A stretch of DNA of 64,000 nt from Anaerolineae bacterium (GCA_016926255.1 JAFGOY010000038.1:62001-126000); one strand, 5' to 3'; shown: positions 53,543 through 64,000, counted from the stretch's first letter. The notes: generated by a model from the sequence alone, not told the origin. Numbers and translations: made by a program.

Positions 53543-53760
53543 TTCTATCTCCTACTTAAGAATAAACAATTATGCTATTCAGAATACCGAAGCAGCATTC
53601 CTGCTACCACAGTCCGTCTGGTCTGTGCCAGCATTCTCATCCATATTTACAAATATAGCAAGTGAAAAAACCATCCATCGTACCCGATTCTGTGATAAAA
53701 TGGGGAATATTTCTGGCAAGATGATCCAATCCTCTACCAGCAACTGTCGGGAAATGTATC
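53543..53760 (+). promoter_or_regulatory. Divergent intergenic region upstream of the sigma operon
   Basis: 218 bases between the LURP-one gene and the sigma-factor gene. A -10-like TGATAAAAT lies at about 53692-53700. I find no convincing -35 for either a housekeeping or an ECF promoter. No hairpin or repeat of note was seen. Confidence 0.3.
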
Positions 53761-54567
53761 ATGATACGCGAAACAGACAAAGAACTATATGCTCAGTGCC
53801 TGCGGAGTATCAAACAGGGCATATCTTTCAATCAATATCCCCTGCCAGAAACCCCGGTCGAAGAATTTGCAGAACGGATTGCCCGCCAGATTTCCGCGAA
53901 CCGGGTTAAAGGGCGTGTACATCAAGACAAAGTTTGCGATCCTGTCACCGGCGTCCCTTCGAGCTATATCAACGTTATCATTTCCTATACACTGGAAGTT
54001 GGCCCGAAGATCGAACTACTGAAGGCTGGCGATGTAAAAAGCTGGAATGAGATCGAGGTATTGGTCAGACGGCGGGTTAATACAAACCTTCGATGTTATG
54101 CATCACTATATGGACACCGCTACGAGCATCTTGCAAAAGAGCTTGTGCAGCATTGTATGGACGTTCTCTGGATCCGCCTGGATGGATACACTTACGACAC
54201 AGACCTGGAGTCCTGGGTATCCCAGTTTGTGGCGCTTGAGGTTAGCACAGAACGACGTAAGTCAGATTTCAAGTGGAACAGCACTGCCCGTTCACTGGAT
54301 CAGCCGATTGGGTTTGGGGAAGGGATCAGCACGCTGGGGGAACTCCTGCCGGACAGAAACGCAGTGCATCATTACGAGCAGATAGACCTCTATTTGTCGG
54401 TGCAGGCTGCCTCGAAATACCTGAGTCCTGATCAGCATGAGGTTATCTGGCGGACACTGTCGGGACAGACTTCCCAGGATATTGCCGATCACATGGGGAA
54501 AAATCGAAACACCATTTATCAGATACGCTATAGGGCTGTAAAAACTTTACGGGAATATATTGACTGA
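53761..54567 (+). CDS. Sigma-70-family (ECF-like) factor with N-terminal extension
   Basis: 268 residues. A region-2-like segment covers about 110-175 (HLAKELVQHCMDVLWIR ... WVSQFVALEV). A region-4 helix-turn-helix lies near the C-terminus (LSPDQHEVIWRTLSGQTSQDIADHMGKNRNTIYQIRYRAVKTL). Before them lie about 90 residues not seen in simple ECF factors. It probably directs RNA polymerase to a small regulon, perhaps including its own operon. The stop overlaps the region upstream of the anti-sigma-like gene. Confidence 0.8.
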   Translation: MIRETDKELYAQCLRSIKQGISFNQYPLPETPVEEFAERIARQISANRVKGRVHQDKVCDPVTGVPSSYINVIISYTLEVGPKIELLKAGDVKSWNEIEVLVRRRVNTNLRCYASLYGHRYEHLAKELVQHCMDVLWIRLDGYTYDTDLESWVSQFVALEVSTERRKSDFKWNSTARSLDQPIGFGEGISTLGELLPDRNAVHHYEQIDLYLSVQAASKYLSPDQHEVIWRTLSGQTSQDIADHMGKNRNTIYQIRYRAVKTLREYID

Positions 54568-54577
54568 GGAAGTATTC

Positions 54578-55249
54578 ATGGGTAGTTCACCAGTTGACCA
54601 CAATTTTCAGCACTGGGAAATTCGTGAATTATTGGGACGTTACGCGGAATTGATCAAGGCCGAGGAAGACACGGAATATATGTACCCGGCTATAGCAGAA
54701 CACCTGTTAAAATGCGATGAATGCCGATCTATCTTAGATGATTTACTTGAACCACATTCTGATATTCCTGTTGATAGCAAAATTACGAGTGAAAACCTCG
54801 ATTTTCTTCAACCCGCTCATCCCACCACAATCGTCCTGGCAAGAAAGAGCAGCACCTCAATCGCGCGGAAAATCCACATCGCATTTCCGGCGAATATGCT
54901 GCCGGGAAGCCCTTTTGCTCCTCAAGTAACAATGCGAGGATTCACCCCCATCCAACCGGGTGGGCGGCTCATTCTCTTCACCAGTATTCCTTTCGACAAC
55001 CAGCAGGAACTCACAGTTATGCTCACACTGCACGATTCCGAGGAGGCAGAAAGCTACACAGTGGTCGGCGAATTATCTGGTGAACCCCTGCCGATCATCA
55101 CCGAAGCACTATTGCATGTAGGCCAGCAGACATACTCCGCAACAATCGATCGCGGGCAGTTGCAATTTGCGAATGTCAGATACGACGACAGCGTAAGCCA
55201 GGTCAGCCTGACAATTGACACGACCCTCCCGAATCCACACCATCATTAG
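54578..55249 (+). CDS. Soluble anti-sigma-like protein with ZAS zinc motif
   Basis: 223 residues. The HxxxCxxC motif of zinc-binding anti-sigma domains is present as HLLKCDEC (His42, Cys46, Cys49) within a helical N-terminal region. No transmembrane segment follows. Instead about 140 residues form a beta-rich domain (RGFTPIQPGGRLILFTSIP, VVGELSGEPLPI). It likely holds the preceding sigma factor inactive. The start ATG 54578 has GAGGAAG in front. Confidence 0.65.
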   Translation: MGSSPVDHNFQHWEIRELLGRYAELIKAEEDTEYMYPAIAEHLLKCDECRSILDDLLEPHSDIPVDSKITSENLDFLQPAHPTTIVLARKSSTSIARKIHIAFPANMLPGSPFAPQVTMRGFTPIQPGGRLILFTSIPFDNQQELTVMLTLHDSEEAESYTVVGELSGEPLPIITEALLHVGQQTYSATIDRGQLQFANVRYDDSVSQVSLTIDTTLPNPHHH

Positions 55250-55252
55250 TAA

Positions 55253-58200
55253 TTGTCACTGACCACCGCAGCGATGATCAAGCCCCTCGAACGGATCAAC
55301 CAGCGCCTGACGGATATCGATCACAAGTTAATAACCGAACAACAACTTACCAATGCCTTCGGCGAGGGCTATCGACAGGTCAGGGCAGATGCCGATACCT
55401 TCATCAAATACAGCCACGAATTGGCCCGGCAGAACCCGGTGCTTGGTTCTCAAAGTGCCCTGGGAGCTTTTGAGTATCTATCGCAATCCGATGATATAGA
55501 GAGAATCGGGCTGGCTTCAGCTGCATTGGGCATGAGTCTGCACTGGTGGGGGCACGATTGGAAAGCACTGAATTATCTTGACGCGGCTCATTCAACACTA
55601 ACCGGCACATTCCCCAGGCTTATGGTCGAGTGGCACCAGTGTTTGTGCGAACGCCGTCTAAACGGCTTGCAGGATACCCACCTGCGGTTGAACGATATTG
55701 CCGCCCAACTCGAATCGGGTGGATCAACTACTGCTGCCATGCGCTGTCGCCTGGATAATGCTATCGTCAACTTGCAGCAGGATGATCTAAAAAAACGACA
55801 GGCCTTTTTGAATTCAGCGAAATCGTTCTTTAAGTCACACAGCTTATGGGGCGATGCGGGAATCGCGTTGATTATCGAAGCCCGGCTGTCTTTTGACCGG
55901 GGAGCGCTCGAAGTTGGGTCCCAACAACTTGACGAAGCCGAAGACGATCTATCACGAGCAGACATGCTCGCGATGCTCGGCTTTTGCTGGATGCTCAGGG
56001 GTATCTATTTCAACCACCACAGAAAAGTCGATCAGGCTGTCGCCTGGCTGGATAAAGCCATCACGAGAGCCAGGGCACTTAGACATCAGTATTACGAAGC
56101 ACTCGCCCTGATGGACCTGGCCGCGATTCAATATCATCAGGGTAAAAGTGAAGAAAGCTACCAGACCAACCAGACAATAAAAGCCATTGCCCACACGCTG
56201 AAAGTAAGACTGCTGGAAGCCAGCGCCACGCTAACAGAGGCAAACTGGAACTTTAACAAAGGAGAATACGCCGCCGCCCAGGACGGGTATGTCCAGGCAC
56301 AGGCATGCTACGAACAGGTAGGCCACCAGCCGAGCGTCGGGATTTGCATCATGAACCAGGGCGTTGTTGCCCGCCGATTGGGGCATTTCGGGCAGTCGCT
56401 GAGACTGCTCAACCAGTCGCTCGACCTTTTCGAGGAAAACAGTCAGTACGAATTTATCGCCACAACCCACCACAACCTGGGAAAAACCTATGCCGCGTTT
56501 GGCTACATCGAACCGGCCATCAAGCATTACCAGTTAAGTATCGAAACCATTGAAGAGACAGGGGCAGCAGCACAGGGCGGAAAGACACTGGTAGAACTCG
56601 CGCTGCTCCTGGCAGAACGAGACGATATCGAACAGGCTCACGTCAAACTCGATCAGGTAGAAAGGGAGGCCATGTCAGCCGGGATGCTTTTTGACCTGGC
56701 ATTATGCGATCAGGCCAGGGGTGACATTCTGCTAAAGGAGCATAAACCGGCCCTGGCGCTGGAAGCATTCCGAAGCAGCCTGGAACAGTGCGAAACCCTT
56801 AACCTGTTAGACACTTCCAGGAATTCACGACTGGGTATGTGCGAAGCATTGATCGCTCAACGGCGGTTAGAGGAGGCCCGCGATCAGATCGATCAGATCG
56901 ATCCGGGAGATCATCCCGCGAGATTGCGCTGGCGCCTCTACCTGCTGGACGCACGCATCGATCGGGAAAAGCTCGATTTCCAGGCCGCGTTATCGGCTTA
57001 TATCAGCGCGCTCGACGAAATACGCCTCGCCCGCCGCAGCCTGGATTTCGAAGAGTACATCGAGCAGTTTGTACGCGCCCTGGAACCGGTCTATTTTGAG
57101 GCGTTCGAACAGGCCATCGAACTGGAAAACTGCCTGGAAGCACTGGTCATTGCCGAACTACATGGCAATCAGCTTCTCGGTATCCGGCTGGGTCACCGGG
57201 CAGCAGAAGAACGAGATTTACGAACCCTTCCTGAGCAGCTCACCACCGCCTTGAACGCCAAACTGGGCTATGAATGGACGATACTTCGCTATGCATGGGG
57301 CAAAGATCATATTCGCCTGTTTGTCCTCACCCCTGGCGAGTTGACCTGGTACAAAATTCCACTGGATCGGGCTGTTCAGATGGCCCTGCGCCTCTGTTCA
57401 AGTCCGGATATATCGTTCCGCCAGTTTGCCTTCCTGGACGATCCACAGCTCCAACCGGGAACATCCGGGCAGGGCAAGTTGACCCGGCAGCAGTTATACA
57501 ACTGCCTTTTCCCGGAAGCGGTGCGGCAGCGACTTCATCCCGATCACACGTTGATCATCGTTCCAACCCACCAGCTTCATGGACTGCCGTTTCAAGCCCT
57601 GATCGACGGTGACAGCCCCCTGATCGAAAAGACACAGGTGCTGTATACACACTCGCTGTCGACGCTGCTTGAGACGATGAAGCGATCCCCTGCCCAGCCG
57701 GGCAATGACAGGCAGGGATTGATCCTGGCCCAATCGGAGTTCGCTGCCGAAGATTTCCCGGCGCTTCCCCATGTCGAATATGAAGTTGCCGCGATCAACC
57801 GCAAGAATCCAACGATCAGCCGCTATCCCAATGCGAAACTCTCGCGGCAGGACCTTCTCCGGGCAGGGCAAACGGGCAGCTTATCTCAGGCAAAGCTGCT
57901 GCATATTGCCACTCACGCTTATTACGACGCGGAAACCGGGGCTTACGCCGGCCTGCTGCTTAGCGAGGACGTTCTCGGCATCGAGGATATTTACAACTGG
58001 AAGCTCCAGGCGCAGCTTGTGACCCTGTCAGCCTGCCAGACGGGTATGGGGCGCTGGTATTACGGTGACGAGATCGTGGGGATTACCCAGGCTTTCCTCA
58101 GCGCCGGGGCACAATCGGTGATTGCCAGCCTGTGGCAGGTTGCCGACGAACACGCCGCCGACCTAATGGCGGAGCTTTATACCCGGCTGGAAAGTTGCGG

Positions 58201-58300
58201 CGAACCGGCAAAAGCCCTGGCCGAAGCGCAGCGTCAGGCCAGCCGATCCGGCCTTGAAACCTTCTACTGGGCACCGTTCAGCGTTTTCGGACAGCCCTGA
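55253..58300 (+). CDS. TPR-CHAT caspase-like protease
   Basis: 1015 residues. About residues 60-600 are tetratricopeptide repeats (for example HHNLGKTYAAFGYIEPAIKHYQLS), forming a sensor scaffold. The C-terminal CHAT domain carries the catalytic dyad: His888 in HIATHA and Cys928 in LSACQTGMG, so it should be active. It probably cleaves target proteins when the TPR part is triggered; the anti-sigma partner is one candidate. TTG 55253 or ATG 55274 are possible starts. It ends where the convergent NACHT gene ends. Confidence 0.9.
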   Translation: MSLTTAAMIKPLERINQRLTDIDHKLITEQQLTNAFGEGYRQVRADADTFIKYSHELARQNPVLGSQSALGAFEYLSQSDDIERIGLASAALGMSLHWWGHDWKALNYLDAAHSTLTGTFPRLMVEWHQCLCERRLNGLQDTHLRLNDIAAQLESGGSTTAAMRCRLDNAIVNLQQDDLKKRQAFLNSAKSFFKSHSLWGDAGIALIIEARLSFDRGALEVGSQQLDEAEDDLSRADMLAMLGFCWMLRGIYFNHHRKVDQAVAWLDKAITRARALRHQYYEALALMDLAAIQYHQGKSEESYQTNQTIKAIAHTLKVRLLEASATLTEANWNFNKGEYAAAQDGYVQAQACYEQVGHQPSVGICIMNQGVVARRLGHFGQSLRLLNQSLDLFEENSQYEFIATTHHNLGKTYAAFGYIEPAIKHYQLSIETIEETGAAAQGGKTLVELALLLAERDDIEQAHVKLDQVEREAMSAGMLFDLALCDQARGDILLKEHKPALALEAFRSSLEQCETLNLLDTSRNSRLGMCEALIAQRRLEEARDQIDQIDPGDHPARLRWRLYLLDARIDREKLDFQAALSAYISALDEIRLARRSLDFEEYIEQFVRALEPVYFEAFEQAIELENCLEALVIAELHGNQLLGIRLGHRAAEERDLRTLPEQLTTALNAKLGYEWTILRYAWGKDHIRLFVLTPGELTWYKIPLDRAVQMALRLCSSPDISFRQFAFLDDPQLQPGTSGQGKLTRQQLYNCLFPEAVRQRLHPDHTLIIVPTHQLHGLPFQALIDGDSPLIEKTQVLYTHSLSTLLETMKRSPAQPGNDRQGLILAQSEFAAEDFPALPHVEYEVAAINRKNPTISRYPNAKLSRQDLLRAGQTGSLSQAKLLHIATHAYYDAETGAYAGLLLSEDVLGIEDIYNWKLQAQLVTLSACQTGMGRWYYGDEIVGITQAFLSAGAQSVIASLWQVADEHAADLMAELYTRLESCGEPAKALAEAQRQASRSGLETFYWAPFSVFGQP

Positions 58301-61177
58301 TCAATCACCATCAAGGCCGAGGCGGAACCCGATCAGCGGTACATAAGCATGCGGCTCGACCGGTCGGCGCTGCGTGCAGTGAATCTGACGCCGTTGATTA
58401 TCGTATGCGCCTCCCCGCAAAATACGCGGTCCAGAAGCACCGATATTCTCGCGCTCTTTGTCTGGTTTGTAGGGATAATCACGCGCTAGGCTACTTGTCC
58501 ACTCCCACACATTTCCACCGAGATCGCAGACACCCTCCGGCGTCTTGTCCTGAGGGAAGATGCCGACAGCGGTTGTCTGCCCGATCCCTGCCTCACGTGT
58601 ATTGGTGCAGTCGTCGCCACTGGCTCGGTTTCCAAAAGGGAACTTGCGGCGATCAAGACCAGCAGCGGCGCGCTCCCATTCCGCCTCAGTCAGAAGGCGA
58701 TACGGCTTCCCGGTTTTGTGACGCAGCCAGTTGGCATAGGCAACAGCCTCATACCAGGTCACACCAACCACCGGGCGGTTGTCGATCCCCAGTGCCGCGT
58801 CATGGATATAACCGCCTGTCCGCGCTGCCCGCTCGCGCCATTCCTGCGCGGCTTTTGTCCAAAACCTGATGTCGGCATAACCATCATCGGCGAGGAACGC
58901 CCGGAACTGTGCATTGGTGATCGGATAACAGGCAATATAAAACGGCTTCAGATTGACCGTGTGGCGTTCGTCGTCGGCACCCATTTCGAAGGGGCCGCCG
59001 TCAACCCAGATCATTTGCGGTTCTACCGAGCAAACACCGGAGCGCGAATCCCCCAGCCAGCCCAACACGTCAGCAGCCTGGGCGCGTTCGATTGGCGTGA
59101 GGTGTCCACCTTCGACCAGCATCGTTAGCTGTGATAGCAGCCGCGATACCACCTGTGTGCCAACATGCTCATCCTGTTCGGCGATGGTGCGGCCAACGAT
59201 GGACAGCATCTCTGCTGCCCACCAGATCGACCGCCACCCCGCCGCGTCTTCCGGGGGCTGGGGTTTACACAGCAGGTTGATCGCGTTGAGCGGACGAAAT
59301 ACGTCCTGCTGATTGAACACAAGGTGACCGACGGAGAGGAGCAGCACCTCGCGCCAGACATCCCCCTGATCAGCAAGAGTCGCGACCAGCCGGGAATATT
59401 CACGGTCGGCGACCAGATACCGGGCAGCCAGGAATTCCTGAAAACCCCGATGTGGAAACGCAAACATCGGGTCACCGTTGTTATCACGCCCTTTTCCAAT
59501 CAACAACCCGGCCCGTTTCTCGACATAGTCACAGAATTTCTGCGCTTTTCCCCAGTCCCCATCAAGATACTTTTGCAGCACCTTAAGGACATCACTCTGC
59601 GGGATATTGACCGCATTGGTCGAGCCATCCTGTGTATTGTGCGCCCGAAACGCAACTTCACACAGGCCATTGATCAGGCGTTCTTCGCGCGTTTCCAACT
59701 CTTCGACAATTCCCTTCACCCATTCGCCCGGCGCAGTTTCTTTCGTTCGCTGCCAATCCCACAACAGCAGTTGGATGCAGTCATTGTAAAGGCGAGCCCG
59801 TTCCTTCGGTAGGGTTCCTTTGTAGGTATGAACCACTGACATGACGGTCAGCAGCATCGGGTTCTGGGCGAGGTCGCCGAGGTTTTTGGCCGCATCTTTG
59901 AGTTCGGCAGCTCTGACAAAAACGCCTTCCCTGTCAATATAGCCCAAACGCCCCAACGTGTTATACCACCGGTCGATAAACAGGTGACGGCTTCTTTCAC
60001 TCAGTGGGGCAAGCATGACGACCTGGAAACGTGTGAGTTGCCATGCCGGATCGGTATACGACAGCACCCGGCAGGTCACGATGAAGCGGCTGCGCGAGTA
60101 CGTTTCGGCAAAATCGGTGACCGCCTCCCGGACGATCTGACGGTGCTTGAGATCGGCGATCTCGTCCAGGCCATCAAACATCACCAGACAGTCGCCCGCG
60201 CGGAGCGCCTGCCGCACATCGGCAGCGAAATCGTTCAGGTTATGCGATTCTAACTGTTTTTTGATATGCCCCCAGACCAGATTGGCCGTTCCACGCCGGG
60301 TCTTTTTGGGAATATCCTGGACAAATTCCCGGAGTTCCAGGCGGATCGGCAGCAGCGGGCCGTGTGACCAATTCGAGGCCCGGCGGCGACCTTCCTGGGG
60401 AACGTCGAGATTTTTCAGATGTCTCTGTTCAGGCCGTACTCTCGCCCCGATCAAACACAGCGTAAGATAGTTGAGGAAACTCGTTTTCCCGGAACCCGGA
60501 TCGCCGAGAATGATCAGACGCCGCACCCGGTTCACAACTTCCAGCGCAGGGACGGGGACGCGTGCCTGAGGATCGTTGTCGTTCTGGAGTGCCTGCTGGG
60601 TGCGCATAATGTCGAGCGGCACGTAGATATCGTTCAGGCTGATGTCCGGGGTAGCCTGATCAGGCATTGCCATTTGCAGATCGAGCTTCCCCAGCGGGAC
60701 CCTCCCCGCGATTTCTTTCAACCAGAGCAGGTAATCCTGTTCCTGCCCGTCGATTTCTGCCGAACCATTGGCAGAGGGACTGGTATTGCCATAGATTACC
60801 TGATCGGCGTGCTTAACCAGCACCTCGGCCTTATTGAAATCCCCCCCGGCAGCCCCGCCGTTGATAGTCACCGATCCCCCTCCGACGTTGGCCCCCGGCA
60901 TCACGCTTCCCTGAATGGCGTTGCTGTCACCCTCGATAGTCGCCGTACCATTCAAGTCAGTAGCGACATCGCGCAGACTGGCGATGATCTGGTCGATCTC
61001 TTTCCTCTGATCGGGATCGACGGTGACTCTCCGGATACCTTCCAGTCGGCGGATCTGTTCAATCAACTGCAAACGACCTGACCCTGCTCTTGCCGGCGAA
61101 CCAGCGTTGATCCTTGGATGAGAATCCGGCCCTTTAGACAGAGACGCCTTATGCACTACCGGTAAATTCGATATCAT
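58301..61177 (-). CDS. NACHT STAND ATPase with Gly-rich repeat and C-terminal FGE-like domain
   Basis: 958 residues. Residues 35-75 are helical. Residues 77-130 form a Gly-rich repeat (NVGGGSVT at 97-104, GGD at 111-113). NACHT core: Walker A GDPGSGKT (225-232), Walker B LVMFDGLDE (331-339), then a winged-helix/helical part including FPHRGFQEFLAARYL (574-588). Residues 715-955 are an FGE/C-type-lectin-like domain (GGNVWEWTSS, RILRGGAY). FGE catalysis needs two Cys near the end; only one is seen (IHCTQRR). The domain is probably a binding module. Confidence 0.9.
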   Translation of the reverse strand: MISNLPVVHKASLSKGPDSHPRINAGSPARAGSGRLQLIEQIRRLEGIRRVTVDPDQRKEIDQIIASLRDVATDLNGTATIEGDSNAIQGSVMPGANVGGGSVTINGGAAGGDFNKAEVLVKHADQVIYGNTSPSANGSAEIDGQEQDYLLWLKEIAGRVPLGKLDLQMAMPDQATPDISLNDIYVPLDIMRTQQALQNDNDPQARVPVPALEVVNRVRRLIILGDPGSGKTSFLNYLTLCLIGARVRPEQRHLKNLDVPQEGRRRASNWSHGPLLPIRLELREFVQDIPKKTRRGTANLVWGHIKKQLESHNLNDFAADVRQALRAGDCLVMFDGLDEIADLKHRQIVREAVTDFAETYSRSRFIVTCRVLSYTDPAWQLTRFQVVMLAPLSERSRHLFIDRWYNTLGRLGYIDREGVFVRAAELKDAAKNLGDLAQNPMLLTVMSVVHTYKGTLPKERARLYNDCIQLLLWDWQRTKETAPGEWVKGIVEELETREERLINGLCEVAFRAHNTQDGSTNAVNIPQSDVLKVLQKYLDGDWGKAQKFCDYVEKRAGLLIGKGRDNNGDPMFAFPHRGFQEFLAARYLVADREYSRLVATLADQGDVWREVLLLSVGHLVFNQQDVFRPLNAINLLCKPQPPEDAAGWRSIWWAAEMLSIVGRTIAEQDEHVGTQVVSRLLSQLTMLVEGGHLTPIERAQAADVLGWLGDSRSGVCSVEPQMIWVDGGPFEMGADDERHTVNLKPFYIACYPITNAQFRAFLADDGYADIRFWTKAAQEWRERAARTGGYIHDAALGIDNRPVVGVTWYEAVAYANWLRHKTGKPYRLLTEAEWERAAAGLDRRKFPFGNRASGDDCTNTREAGIGQTTAVGIFPQDKTPEGVCDLGGNVWEWTSSLARDYPYKPDKERENIGASGPRILRGGAYDNQRRQIHCTQRRPVEPHAYVPLIGFRLGLDGD

Positions 61178-61245
61178 TGTCTGATACTCCTATTGCCAGG
61201 ACACCCACTTACCCATACAATGAGACAAATTCTAAGGAGATTTTA

Positions 61246-61740
61246 ATGGATAACAAACCCGATTCTAACCTTTCTAACCCAAAAGAGAAACTCCAGAATC
61301 CTCCGGGTAGTGTTGGCGGAGACCAGAACATCGTCGGCGGTGATGTTGGAGTAGGCGGCAATGTCGGCAGCGGTTCGGTCACCGCCGATTACATCGTTGG
61401 CGGCGACTTGACATTTAATGGAAAAATGTCTGGCGAGAAAACCGAGTTCGCCGAGACGATGATCAGATTACGCGATCTGATCATTCAAGCCTACAAAAAC
61501 GGTGAGCTACCCGAAAAGGTCGCCCGCAAAACACTCGCCAACCTCAAAGAAACTGCCGAACTGGTCACGAAAGAAGAAAAGCCGCCTAAAAGTAAAATCA
61601 TCCAGAAACTTCAATATGTCGCCGACGTGCTTGACGCCGCCGTCGACATGATCAGTTCACAGGGAAACATTGCCTCGGTACTCGTACGCGCTGCGCCTAT
61701 CGCCGCGCTATTGATCAAGATAGCGACTCGTATCTTCTGA
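61246..61740 (+). CDS. Small Gly-rich-repeat protein with C-terminal hydrophobic helix
   Basis: 164 residues of unknown function. Residues 20-60 are a Gly-rich repeat (VGGD, VGGD, NVGSGSVT, VGGD) likely to form a short beta-solenoid. Residues 62-135 are helical and charged. Residues 142-164 (ASVLVRAAPIAALLIKIATRIF) form a hydrophobic helix able to enter a membrane. AAGGAG precedes ATG 61246. It is divergent from the NACHT-FGE gene, with which it shares the repeat. An effector or adaptor role is inferred. Confidence 0.75.
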   Translation: MDNKPDSNLSNPKEKLQNPPGSVGGDQNIVGGDVGVGGNVGSGSVTADYIVGGDLTFNGKMSGEKTEFAETMIRLRDLIIQAYKNGELPEKVARKTLANLKETAELVTKEEKPPKSKIIQKLQYVADVLDAAVDMISSQGNIASVLVRAAPIAALLIKIATRIF

Positions 61741-64000
61741 TCGCGCACCCAGTCGCGGCACCGTTGGCCGGGCACGCGCAACAATCCAACCCAGTGCGCG
61801 ATGAATCTCGTTCTGTTTCCGGCTGTCCTCGTCCCAGGCCGCGCGGAGTGGCAGCCGTGACAGCACATCCGACAGGTCACGCGCCACTTCGAGCAGTTCT
61901 TTGCCGGTCAGGGGAGGATCAGGAATGTGGCGCACGATGAATCCGAGTGCAATACCGGCTGCACACCGGACATCGAGTGGCCCGCTACGAAGCGCATTGC
62001 GCAGTGTGTCGACCATCGTTGCCGACAGCTCACGAACATTCGCCATACTCCGTAAAGCAGCCGCCCGCACTTCGACATTCTCTGCCTGGTGGGCAGCATC
62101 GAGCAGGATGCGCTGGATCGCCGGAGCGTCTTCCAGAGCGTGCCCCAGGATTTCAAGAGCGAGAACCCTCACTTTCGCCGACGATGCTTTCAACTGCCCG
62201 GACCCGACATCTTTCATCACTGCCAGGTCCATCACATAATTCACCACTTCCGAACTGAGTGGTGTGTGGGCTTTCAGACAGTTGACGATGTCCTGCCCCA
62301 GAGTATCCCCATAAGTCTGTAGAGACTGGATAAGCGAAATAAGCGCCACATCCGGCAGGTTCCGGAGCGAAGCCAGGGCGCGAACGGCCCCCCGCGTAAC
62401 GGTGTGATCGGGCATAACGACCAGTGAATTCAGGTAGTCGACAATTTCCGGTCCAGGGTCCCGCAAACTGGCGATGGTATCAAGTGTCGCTTCACGCACC
62501 GATACCTCGCGGTCACTGAGCAGGATATAGAGCACCTCGCGGAGTTCGGTGTTTGGCTCCGGAATATGCTTGAGCGCCGAGGCAACTGCACCCCGAACCA
62601 GAGGAATGGTATCAGTGGCGATGTGTGACAGCATGTGTAATGCCTGGGGATCATCTTTCCCCTTGCGGACAATCGGGTCGATAACCGCCGCACGGATGCT
62701 GTCGGAGGGATCGTCCAGACGTTCGATCAGGGCATCGACGATGTCGGACGTATTATTTGTGCAGGCTCCAAGGGCCCTGATTGCAGCCGTGCGCACCCTG
62801 CCATCAGGATCATCTGACCAAAGGACCAACTGCGAAACCACCAGTGACGGTAGTTCGATAGGACGTGCAAAGGCGCTGATCGCCATCGACCGGAAGGAAG
62901 GATCGCCGTCGGCAATCGTCCGGCAGATGACAGTCAATGCATCATCCGGCAGATTGGAGATACCGGCGAGAGTCTCGACCGCCCGCTGGCAGATCGTCGG
63001 CTCCGGGTCATTCAGCAGTTGGAGCAGTTCGTTGATAACCGTTCGCGGCAAAGAGCCGATCTGCTTCAACCGCCGCAAGCTGACGCGCCGCCGGACGGGA
63101 TCGTCACTGTGCAGGAACTCGATCCACATGTTCAGGGTTTCGGTTGGAACCGGCGGGATATGGGCCAGAGCTTCTTTGCTGCTGGTTGCCACCTTCTCGT
63201 CAGTATCGGCGGTGAGCATCAGCAGGTAAACGTACGCCTCTTTGGAAAGCGCCCCCATCCGGCTCAGCGCATTTGCCAGTGCACGGCGAACCAGAAGAGG
63301 CTGCTGGTAACCAAGTGCCACAACCGCCTTTTGTGCCTCGTCAAGATGAGAAGGCCAGAAGGTCAGGGAATCCACCGCGAAAGCCTGGGAATACTCGCTT
63401 GGGGCCGAGAGATTCTCGAAAACACTCTGGGCAGCAAGCCAGGTAGCTGAAGTCCCTTCGAGATTGATCAAATGGCGGCGGGCCATGTCATAGATGGCAC
63501 TGAAGCGTCCTAGGCTGTCGCGTTCGCCGTAAATCCACAGTTCGGTCAGCTTCTCGATGACATACTTGACGATATCCGGGCGAATCTCCACGCCGCTGCC
63601 AAGCAGCCGCGCAGCGAAGAAAAGATCGCGCTTGAGCAGTGCTTCAAAAGGACTGGAGGCATGGCCGAACTGCCCGGCCTGTTCCCCGTGAGCCATCACC
63701 GCTGTTTCGACGAGTTCAGAAGCATCGTCGGGCGAGTTCATAGAAACAAACCCGATTGCCAGCATGATCACCTCGTCCCAGCGTGGATCATGCAAATTCT
63801 CGCGGATGCGCTTTGCCGCCCGGCGGTAGCTGGCAACGAGATACCGGGCCGCAAAGTATTCTTGCAGACCCTGATAGATAAAGCCGTACCGCTCCGGGCC
63901 AAGTTCGATGAACACACCTGAACGGACACGCAGTATCCCCAGGAAGCTCCCTATTGCCCGGTCGACTTCCATTGGCATCAGGTCGTCGTGCAGCCTGCTC
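61708..64000 (-). CDS. NACHT-type STAND protein C-terminal part with HEAT repeats (5' end outside window)
   Basis: The frame stays open to the window edge, so the protein is partial. The first visible part (about 63980-63600) has the hallmark end of a NACHT module: GFIYQGLQEYFAARYLVAS. About 600 residues of HEAT-like repeats follow (for example VRTAAIRALGACTN, VRGAVASALKHIPE, VRAAALRSMANVRE). HEAT arrays often recognise the trigger in STAND proteins. The ATPase core is not visible. It overlaps the end of the small plus-strand gene by 33 bases. Confidence 0.85.
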   Translation of the reverse strand, partial: SRLHDDLMPMEVDRAIGSFLGILRVRSGVFIELGPERYGFIYQGLQEYFAARYLVASYRRAAKRIRENLHDPRWDEVIMLAIGFVSMNSPDDASELVETAVMAHGEQAGQFGHASSPFEALLKRDLFFAARLLGSGVEIRPDIVKYVIEKLTELWIYGERDSLGRFSAIYDMARRHLINLEGTSATWLAAQSVFENLSAPSEYSQAFAVDSLTFWPSHLDEAQKAVVALGYQQPLLVRRALANALSRMGALSKEAYVYLLMLTADTDEKVATSSKEALAHIPPVPTETLNMWIEFLHSDDPVRRRVSLRRLKQIGSLPRTVINELLQLLNDPEPTICQRAVETLAGISNLPDDALTVICRTIADGDPSFRSMAISAFARPIELPSLVVSQLVLWSDDPDGRVRTAAIRALGACTNNTSDIVDALIERLDDPSDSIRAAVIDPIVRKGKDDPQALHMLSHIATDTIPLVRGAVASALKHIPEPNTELREVLYILLSDREVSVREATLDTIASLRDPGPEIVDYLNSLVVMPDHTVTRGAVRALASLRNLPDVALISLIQSLQTYGDTLGQDIVNCLKAHTPLSSEVVNYVMDLAVMKDVGSGQLKASSAKVRVLALEILGHALEDAPAIQRILLDAAHQAENVEVRAAALRSMANVRELSATMVDTLRNALRSGPLDVRCAAGIALGFIVRHIPDPPLTGKELLEVARDLSDVLSRLPLRAAWDEDSRKQNEIHRALGWIVARARPTVPRLGARSEDTSRYLDQ

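What the first reader, a model, noticed from the sequence alone, without database searches (positions are those of the whole stretch)
53761..58300. Sigma factor, soluble zinc anti-sigma-like protein and TPR-CHAT protease in one operon
The CHAT dyad (His888, Cys928) is intact. A non-membrane ZAS-type protein lies between a sigma-like factor and a caspase-like protease. This suggests that activation of CHAT releases the sigma factor by cutting its partner, giving a transcriptional arm to a death or defence response. No membrane segment exists in any of the three proteins.
Basis: partly seen in the sequence, partly recalled or inferred. Interest (0 to 1): 0.75.

Follow-up and report, generated by a model that had tools for sequence, protein, structure and literature searches.

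The report
Sigma, anti-sigma and CHAT protease module
A bacterium of the phylum Chloroflexota carries a three-gene set, shared by many relatives, in which a caspase-like protease probably cuts the inhibitor of a transcription factor to switch on genes, much like one branch of CRISPR immunity but with no CRISPR parts involved.

Summary
At 53761-58300 (+) lie an ECF-type sigma factor, a soluble protein with an intact zinc anti-sigma (ZAS) motif, and a 1015-aa TPR-CHAT protease with an intact His888/Cys928 dyad. Gaps are 10 and 3 nt; no protein has a membrane segment. The trio is conserved: 32 of 50 CHAT relatives with room upstream have a sigma gene within 1.5 kb, and a sigma-anchored scan found 9 complete trios, all in Chloroflexota. 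One Arg, in a flexible loop before the C-terminal beta-sandwich of the middle protein (window R120), is kept in 42 of 43 CHAT-linked middle proteins at ~18% mean identity. Sister sigma/ZAS pairs without an adjacent CHAT mostly lack this domain; three have an M48 protease instead. I propose that activated CHAT cuts the anti-sigma protein after this Arg and releases sigma. Binding, cleavage, release and signal are untested; a defence or death role is not shown. Precedents are Craspase (Csx29-Csx30-CASP-sigma), CalpL/T/S, the TPR-CHAT-fold anti-sigma DdvA, and ECF54, whose published gene context matches a second class found here. It is a CRISPR-free variant of a known kind.

The parts
53691..53701 (+). 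Possible extended -10 element TGTGATAAAAT of a housekeeping promoter, 60 nt before the sigma start
   Evidence: Read in the sequence; the same TGTGATAMAAT string lies upstream of the sigma genes of L038 and L048. Inference only.
53761..54567 (+). ECF-type sigma factor, 268 aa, with a conserved extension of about 100 aa before region 2
   Evidence: PF08281 above cut-off, TIGR02937 5e-10; family profile matches SigW and RpoE structures; alignment of relatives
54578..55249 (+). Soluble ZAS-type anti-sigma protein, 223 aa (middle protein)
   Evidence: Zinc motif with fixed spacing; conserved position between sigma and CHAT; family profile weakly matches RsiW (E 0.77); AlphaFold2 model
54611..54724 (+). 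Zinc ligands H12 (54611-54613), H42 (54701-54703), C46 (54713-54715), C49 (54722-54724)
   Evidence: Sequence; alignment
54935..54937 (+). Codon of R120, the conserved loop Arg; proposed cut between R120 and G121
   Evidence: 42 of 43 CHAT-linked middle proteins; followed by Gly/Ala/Ser in 36 of 42; coil of low pLDDT in the model. The cut itself is inferred.
54962..55225 (+). C-terminal beta-sandwich, residues 129-216
   Evidence: AlphaFold2, pLDDT about 87-94; best fold matches MATH/TRAF domains at Z about 8, too weak to assign
55253..58300 (+). TPR-CHAT protease, 1015 aa (TTG start; ATG at 55274 also possible)
   Evidence: PF12770 1.6e-56 and TPR families; fold matches Csx29, separase and DdvA
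57914..57916 (+). Codon of catalytic His888
   Evidence: Aligned with Csx29 H615; invariant in 35 CHAT proteins
58034..58036 (+). Codon of catalytic Cys928
   Evidence: Aligned with Csx29 C658; invariant in 35 CHAT proteins

Best explanation
The three genes encode a cytoplasmic, CRISPR-independent signalling cascade. The soluble ZAS protein holds the ECF-type sigma factor inactive. An unknown ligand or partner acts on the long TPR superhelix and allosterically activates the CHAT protease. CHAT then cuts the anti-sigma protein in the exposed loop of its C-terminal beta domain, after the conserved Arg (R120|G121 in the window). The damaged inhibitor lets go of sigma, possibly after further degradation by a housekeeping protease, and sigma turns on its target genes. 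SHOWN here: the genes, motifs, conserved order, co-variation, conserved loop Arg, intact dyad and predicted folds. INFERRED: sigma binding, cleavage, the exact bond, sigma release, the inducing signal and the regulon.
For: Trio in the same order in many families, found by two independent anchors. Fixed-spacing zinc ligands in class A. Loop Arg in 42 of 43 CHAT-linked middle proteins, with Gly/Ala/Ser next in 36 of 42 against 143 of 687 for other Arg, in a flexible coil of the model. Second sigma/ZAS pairs without CHAT have a different C-terminal domain, three of them followed by an M48 protease. In L039/L040 the sigma is replaced by a BTAD-AAA-TPR regulator and the ZAS part is lost, but beta domain, Arg and CHAT stay. 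Dyad invariant. Protease fold like Csx29, separase and the anti-sigma DdvA. Same logic experimentally shown for Csx29-Csx30-CASP-sigma and CalpL/T/S.
Against: No biochemistry. MAFFT lines up Arg well even in shuffled sequences (up to 36 of 43), so the Arg count alone overstates the case. The separase residue that reads P1 Arg is not conserved here (Ala969 by my counting). The CHAT of L037, in the window's own GTDB family, has no sigma/ZAS neighbour. Two ZAS proteins with the Arg (L106, L110) have no CHAT next to them, although their genomes hold one elsewhere. Class B middle proteins often lack zinc ligands, so sigma binding there is less sure.
Confidence: 0.58

Rival explanations
1. The middle protein is a securin-like pseudosubstrate: its Arg loop sits in the CHAT active site and keeps the protease off, while its ZAS domain holds sigma. 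A signal opens the complex and frees both without cutting the middle protein; CHAT then cuts another target.
For: The Arg loop goes with CHAT even where ZAS and sigma are gone (L039, L040). Separase, the closest eukaryotic fold relative with Csx29, is inhibited by securin.
Against: Csx30, the nearest functional parallel, is a cut substrate. A small residue (Gly/Ala/Ser) after the Arg suits a scissile bond.
Confidence: 0.2
2. The sigma/ZAS pair is an ordinary redox or metal sensor like RpoE-ChrR or SigR-RsrA, and the CHAT gene is only a co-transcribed output gene.
For: Zinc ligands with CxxC are intact in class A, and soluble ZAS proteins of this kind usually respond to oxidation.
Against: Many CHAT-linked middle proteins lack the zinc ligands but keep the Arg loop. 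[quoted passage not shown]
Confidence: 0.13
3. The three genes are neighbours with no joint function; CHAT acts in a separate conflict system together with the NACHT genes downstream.
For: Stand-alone CHAT relatives exist (L037, L047, L052, L057), and a NACHT-FGE gene lies convergent to the trio.
Against: Repeated conservation of sigma-ZAS-CHAT in many families by two anchors, and co-variation.
Confidence: 0.06

Closest known systems
Type III-E Craspase: Csx29 (TPR-CHAT), Csx30, CASP-sigma (RpoE)
   Same: TPR-CHAT protease with aligned H/C dyad and like fold; protease, sigma inhibitor and ECF sigma encoded together; [quoted passage not shown]
   Different: No Cas7-11, and no RAMP protein in the genome; the inhibitor here is a ZAS protein of 223 aa, not Csx30 (565 aa); Csx29 model score 48 bits against a cut-off of 300; conserved Arg at the proposed site, whereas Csx30 needs no particular residue
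CalpL/CalpT/CalpS of type III CRISPR
   Same: Protease cuts an anti-sigma factor that holds an ECF sigma
   Different: CalpL is a SAVED-Lon protease driven by cA4; the window has a CHAT protease and no cyclic-nucleotide sensor domain was found in it
DdvA/DdvS of Myxococcus xanthus
   Same: Best Foldseek match of the window CHAT model is the solved anti-sigma factor DdvA, a CHAT-domain protein (8rw5/8rot, E 8e-15)
   Different: DdvA is one transmembrane chain; here anti-sigma and TPR-CHAT are two soluble proteins. Whether DdvA keeps the dyad could not be read.
ECF54 sigma factors (published gene context: carboxypeptidase, subtilase, CHAT)
   Same: Class B loci found here have exactly ECF, CarboxypepD_reg-like protein, TPR-CHAT and subtilase (context from PMC8999054); their middle proteins share the Arg loop with the window
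   Different: The window is class A: longer sigma, true ZAS middle protein, no subtilase. ECF54 is described as having no anti-sigma factor.
Soluble ZAS anti-sigma factors (ChrR, RsrA, RshA); groups ECF270/ECF271
   Same: Soluble protein with N-terminal ZAS domain and C-terminal beta domain; ECF271 has a Chloroflexi type member
   Different: No linked caspase-like protease is described for them in the review read; the C-terminal domain of ChrR is a cupin

Membership tests
Type III-E Craspase module | Csx29-type TPR-CHAT protein | tested here: not met
   NF041237 48 bits, cut-off 300; fold is alike
Type III-E Craspase module | Cas7-11/gRAMP effector in the genome | tested here: not met
   No PF03787 match in the 96% complete genome; control genomes ring
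CHAT protease family (PF12770) | Domain score above the curated cut-off and His/Cys dyad | tested here: met
   192 bits against 24; H888 and C928
ECF-type sigma-70 factor | Regions 2 and 4 without region 1.1 or 3 | tested here: met
   Region 4 above the Pfam cut-off; family profile spans regions 2 to 4 of SigW, SigE and RpoE. TIGR02937 is slightly below its cut-off.
ZAS anti-sigma factor | C/H-x(~24-30)-H-x3-C-x2-C in an N-terminal helical domain | tested here: met
   H12, H42, C46, C49; three helices 12-57 with pLDDT above 90. zf-HC2 hits only 2 of 17 relatives, weakly.
ZAS anti-sigma factor | Binds and inhibits the cognate sigma | not testable with these tools
   Needs binding and transcription assays
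ECF54 | Gene context of carboxypeptidase, subtilase and CHAT | tested here: not met
   Window: CHAT only, no subtilase or CarboxypepD_reg hit. Class B relatives do have the context.
ECF54 | Match to the published ECF54 profile | not testable with these tools
   The classification paper and its models are not held

The most novel reading that the evidence does not exclude
A CRISPR-independent family of caspase-like protease, anti-sigma and sigma cascades, widespread in Chloroflexota, in which a stand-alone TPR-CHAT protease cuts its anti-sigma partner after one conserved Arg. Protease and substrate domain are exchanged as a matched pair (CHAT with the Arg beta-sandwich, M48 with a different domain). 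Craspase and CalpL/T/S would then be CRISPR-linked versions of a more general signalling device, and ECF54 would gain its missing anti-sigma factor.
Probability: 0.45. Interest if true: 0.78.

Novelty: new variant of a known kind. Interest (0 to 1): 0.62.

Why it matters
It offers a CRISPR-free parallel, and possibly a forerunner, of the Craspase transcriptional arm, with a single-residue cleavage site that can be tested directly. It also suggests that the proteolytic control proposed for ECF54 without an anti-sigma factor acts through an unrecognised anti-sigma-like protein. Either would show bacterial caspase relatives acting as specific signalling proteases and not only as killers.

Tried and rejected
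Close homologues: window sigma and ZAS at strict E-values found none in 400 phylum genomes; single-protein scans of genome contigs with CHAT and of viral contigs with sigma found none, nor did the sigma alignment in viral contigs. Separase S1 Asp: I first took the LWxVxD Asp (D965) for separase D2151; counting against the published K670 equivalence puts D2151 at another column (window Ala969), so this argument for P1 Arg was dropped. D965 and E844 are invariant in non-trio CHATs too, so they do not discriminate. Fold of the beta domain: best Z about 8 to MATH/TRAF domains, too weak to name; no ZAS structure is among the listed matches, which says nothing either way. Fused ZAS-CHAT proteins among the fetched loci: none found. 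Reading the DdvA dyad from PDB alignments failed. Regulon motif: a bipartite element is shared by several class-A loci but is absent from the window, and most genome-wide matches lie inside genes. Defence role: only weak PADLOC domain hits. Papers with all of CHAT domain, sigma factor and anti-sigma: only the Craspase paper; most subscription papers, including the ECF reclassification, are not held.

Full report
OBSERVATION. The window carries three tandem + strand genes: sigma 53761-54567, middle protein 54578-55249 (ATG behind a GAGGAA ribosome site, so 223 aa and not the 229-aa TTG frame), and TPR-CHAT 55253-58300. The gaps are 10 and 3 nt, so one operon is likely. The sigma passes Pfam's cut-off for region 4, and its family profile aligns with SigW and RpoE over regions 2 to 4. 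It has a conserved extension of about 100 residues before region 2. The middle protein has no Pfam match, but has the zinc anti-sigma motif H42-x3-C46-x2-C49 and H12 thirty residues before; that distance holds in all 13 class-A proteins with the motif. CHAT scores 1.6e-56, and H888 and C928 align with Csx29 H615 and C658. No protein has a hydrophobic stretch of membrane type.

WHERE IT COMES FROM. The genome is a 4.6 Mb, 96% complete assembly. Genomes that the tool calls 'same class' correspond to named Chloroflexota records such as VGOG01, JAUQXC01 (Thermoflexales) and PMCF01 (Anaerolineae). A class close to Anaerolineae is therefore inferred.

CONSERVATION OF THE TRIO. CHAT relatives were collected from 346 genomes of the class without regard to their neighbours, and flanks of 60 loci were read. 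Of 50 with at least 1.5 kb upstream, 32 have a sigma profile hit within 1.5 kb on the same strand; the same 868 kb holds only 10 other sigma hits. Three further upstream genes match Sigma70_r2, one above and two below the cut-off. An independent scan anchored on the sigma found 15 relevant loci, all Chloroflexota: 9 are complete trios, 3 are cut by a contig end, and 3 have no adjacent CHAT. The genomes of two of those three (L106, L110) carry the matching CHAT elsewhere, at contig edges. Distances of the three proteins correlate (r 0.74-0.85); this is expected for genes inherited together and is not proof of contact. The counter-example is L037, from the window's own GTDB family: its CHAT stands alone.

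TWO CLASSES. Class A, to which the window belongs, has long sigmas (about 250-320 aa, a few longer) and middle proteins of mostly 220-300 aa, usually with intact zinc ligands. Class B has mostly short ECFs, middle proteins of about 200 aa with a CarboxypepD_reg-like C-terminal domain and often no zinc ligands, a TPR-CHAT of about 950 aa and, next door, a subtilase. [quoted passage not shown] Class B matches that description. I infer, but could not test, that class B is ECF54 and that its 'carboxypeptidase' is the middle protein described here.

THE CONSERVED ARGININE. In an alignment of 43 CHAT-linked middle proteins (mean identity 18%), one Arg is kept in 42; the next best column is a Gly at 40, and the zinc ligands are kept in about 24. 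The 43rd protein (L053) has an Arg two residues further on. MAFFT can line up residues by itself: whole shuffles gave up to 36 and local shuffles up to 34. A better test is the next residue: Gly, Ala or Ser in 36 of 42, against 143 of 687 for all other Arg of the same proteins (p 8e-18; the sequences are related, so this overstates the independence). In the AlphaFold2 model of the window protein, R120 lies in a coil (108-128) where the mean pLDDT falls to 54 (block 111-120), before the beta-sandwich 129-216. Csx30 is likewise cut in a flexible loop of its C-terminal domain (PMC10028731).

NATURAL CONTROLS. Several loci have a second sigma/ZAS pair that is not followed by CHAT. In five (L042, L043, L048, L068, L073) the ZAS protein has a different C-terminal domain, helical by eye, and no such loop (in L048 the automatic alignment puts an unrelated Arg in that column). 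In three of them (L043, L068, L073) the next gene is a polytopic M48 protease with HELAH. In two (L063, L075) a beta domain is present and the loop reads Ser by eye; for L063 the automatic alignment placed another Arg there, so this case is weak. No protease follows these two on the same strand. In L039 and L040 the sigma is replaced by a BTAD-AAA-TPR regulator and the middle protein has lost the ZAS part, yet keeps the beta domain, the Arg and the CHAT gene. The C-terminal domain therefore goes with the protease and the N-terminal domain with the transcription factor. That is the pattern expected of an adaptor that is a protease substrate or inhibitor at one end and a regulator clamp at the other. 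The numbers are small.

FOLD OF THE PROTEASE. The window CHAT model (10 sequences, mean pLDDT 79.5) best matches by Foldseek the solved transmembrane anti-sigma factor DdvA (8rw5/8rot), then separase and Csx29. By VIA-align Csx29 leads (Z 28.3, 498 residues, rmsd 13.9 over a flexible chain), with C. thermophilum separase at Z 24.5 (313 residues, rmsd 3.6). DdvA, the anti-sigma of the M. xanthus ECF sigma DdvS (PMC4374960), is a CHAT-domain protein in the PDB. Nature has thus also joined an anti-sigma and a TPR-CHAT fold in one chain.

MECHANISM. Best reading: ZAS holds sigma; a signal on the TPR part activates CHAT; CHAT cuts after R120; sigma is freed. In Craspase the cut inhibitor fragment can stay on sigma and further degradation may be needed, so a second step is likely here too. 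P1 specificity is not settled: the separase Asp that reads P1 Arg is a Lys in Csx29 (PMC9729208) and, by my counting, Ala969 here. A securin-like pseudosubstrate role remains the main rival.

WHAT IS NOT SUPPORTED. A death or defence role is not shown. The convergent NACHT-FGE gene and the HEAT-repeat protein next door look like conflict-system genes but are not part of the conserved set. No RAMP-family CRISPR protein is found in the genome.

NOVELTY. Protease, anti-sigma, sigma cascades with caspase-like or Lon proteases are known in CRISPR loci, and ECF-CHAT neighbourhoods are known (ECF54). New here, as far as the held literature shows, are a CRISPR-free class with a true soluble ZAS partner, the common architecture of the middle protein with its conserved loop Arg, and the exchange with M48. 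I rate it a new variant of a known kind.

Noticed in passing
58301-61177 (-), 61177-61740 (+), 61708-63978 (-): A NACHT protein with a C-terminal FGE-sulfatase (SUMF1-like) domain, a divergent small protein with Gly-Gly-Asp repeats, and a HEAT-repeat protein lie just downstream; they look like conflict-system genes but are not conserved with the trio.
   Followed up: partly
L043 1351-5234, L068 3719-7837, L073 10160-14103: Second sigma/ZAS pairs beside the CHAT trio are followed by a polytopic M48 metalloprotease (HELAH), a parallel sigma/anti-sigma/protease set.
   Followed up: partly
L039 5831-12703, L040 2902-9639: The sigma is replaced by a BTAD-AAA-TPR (SARP/STAND-like) regulator, and the middle protein keeps only the beta domain with the Arg before CHAT.
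   Followed up: partly
L045 5081-5109, L106 501-529; also L042 7930, L043 13316, L044 12799, L104 2689, L108 5599; opposite orientation at L038 1130, L075 12398, L110 9782: Conserved bipartite intergenic element TRATGCA-N11-AATTCTTTCAC (read the other way GTGAAAGAATT-N11-TGCATYA, promoter-like) next to class-A sigma genes; possibly the promoter of this sigma family. Not found in the window.
   Followed up: partly
L043 13619-13933, L044 12820-13227, L104 2259-2657: Conserved small protein (105-136 aa) of unknown family, divergent from the sigma gene and next to that element; a candidate target gene.
   Followed up: no
L042 8121-10844: A CHAT-NB-ARC-TPR protein is encoded divergently from a class-A trio.
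   Followed up: no
L085 8937-13381, L092 3636-8455: Larger CHAT proteins with an apparent N-terminal signal sequence follow a lipoprotein-like gene; an exported CHAT variant.
   Followed up: no
G000:C51:76102-76965 (L123): The only other CHAT-domain gene found in the window's genome (open frame 1125 aa).
   Followed up: no
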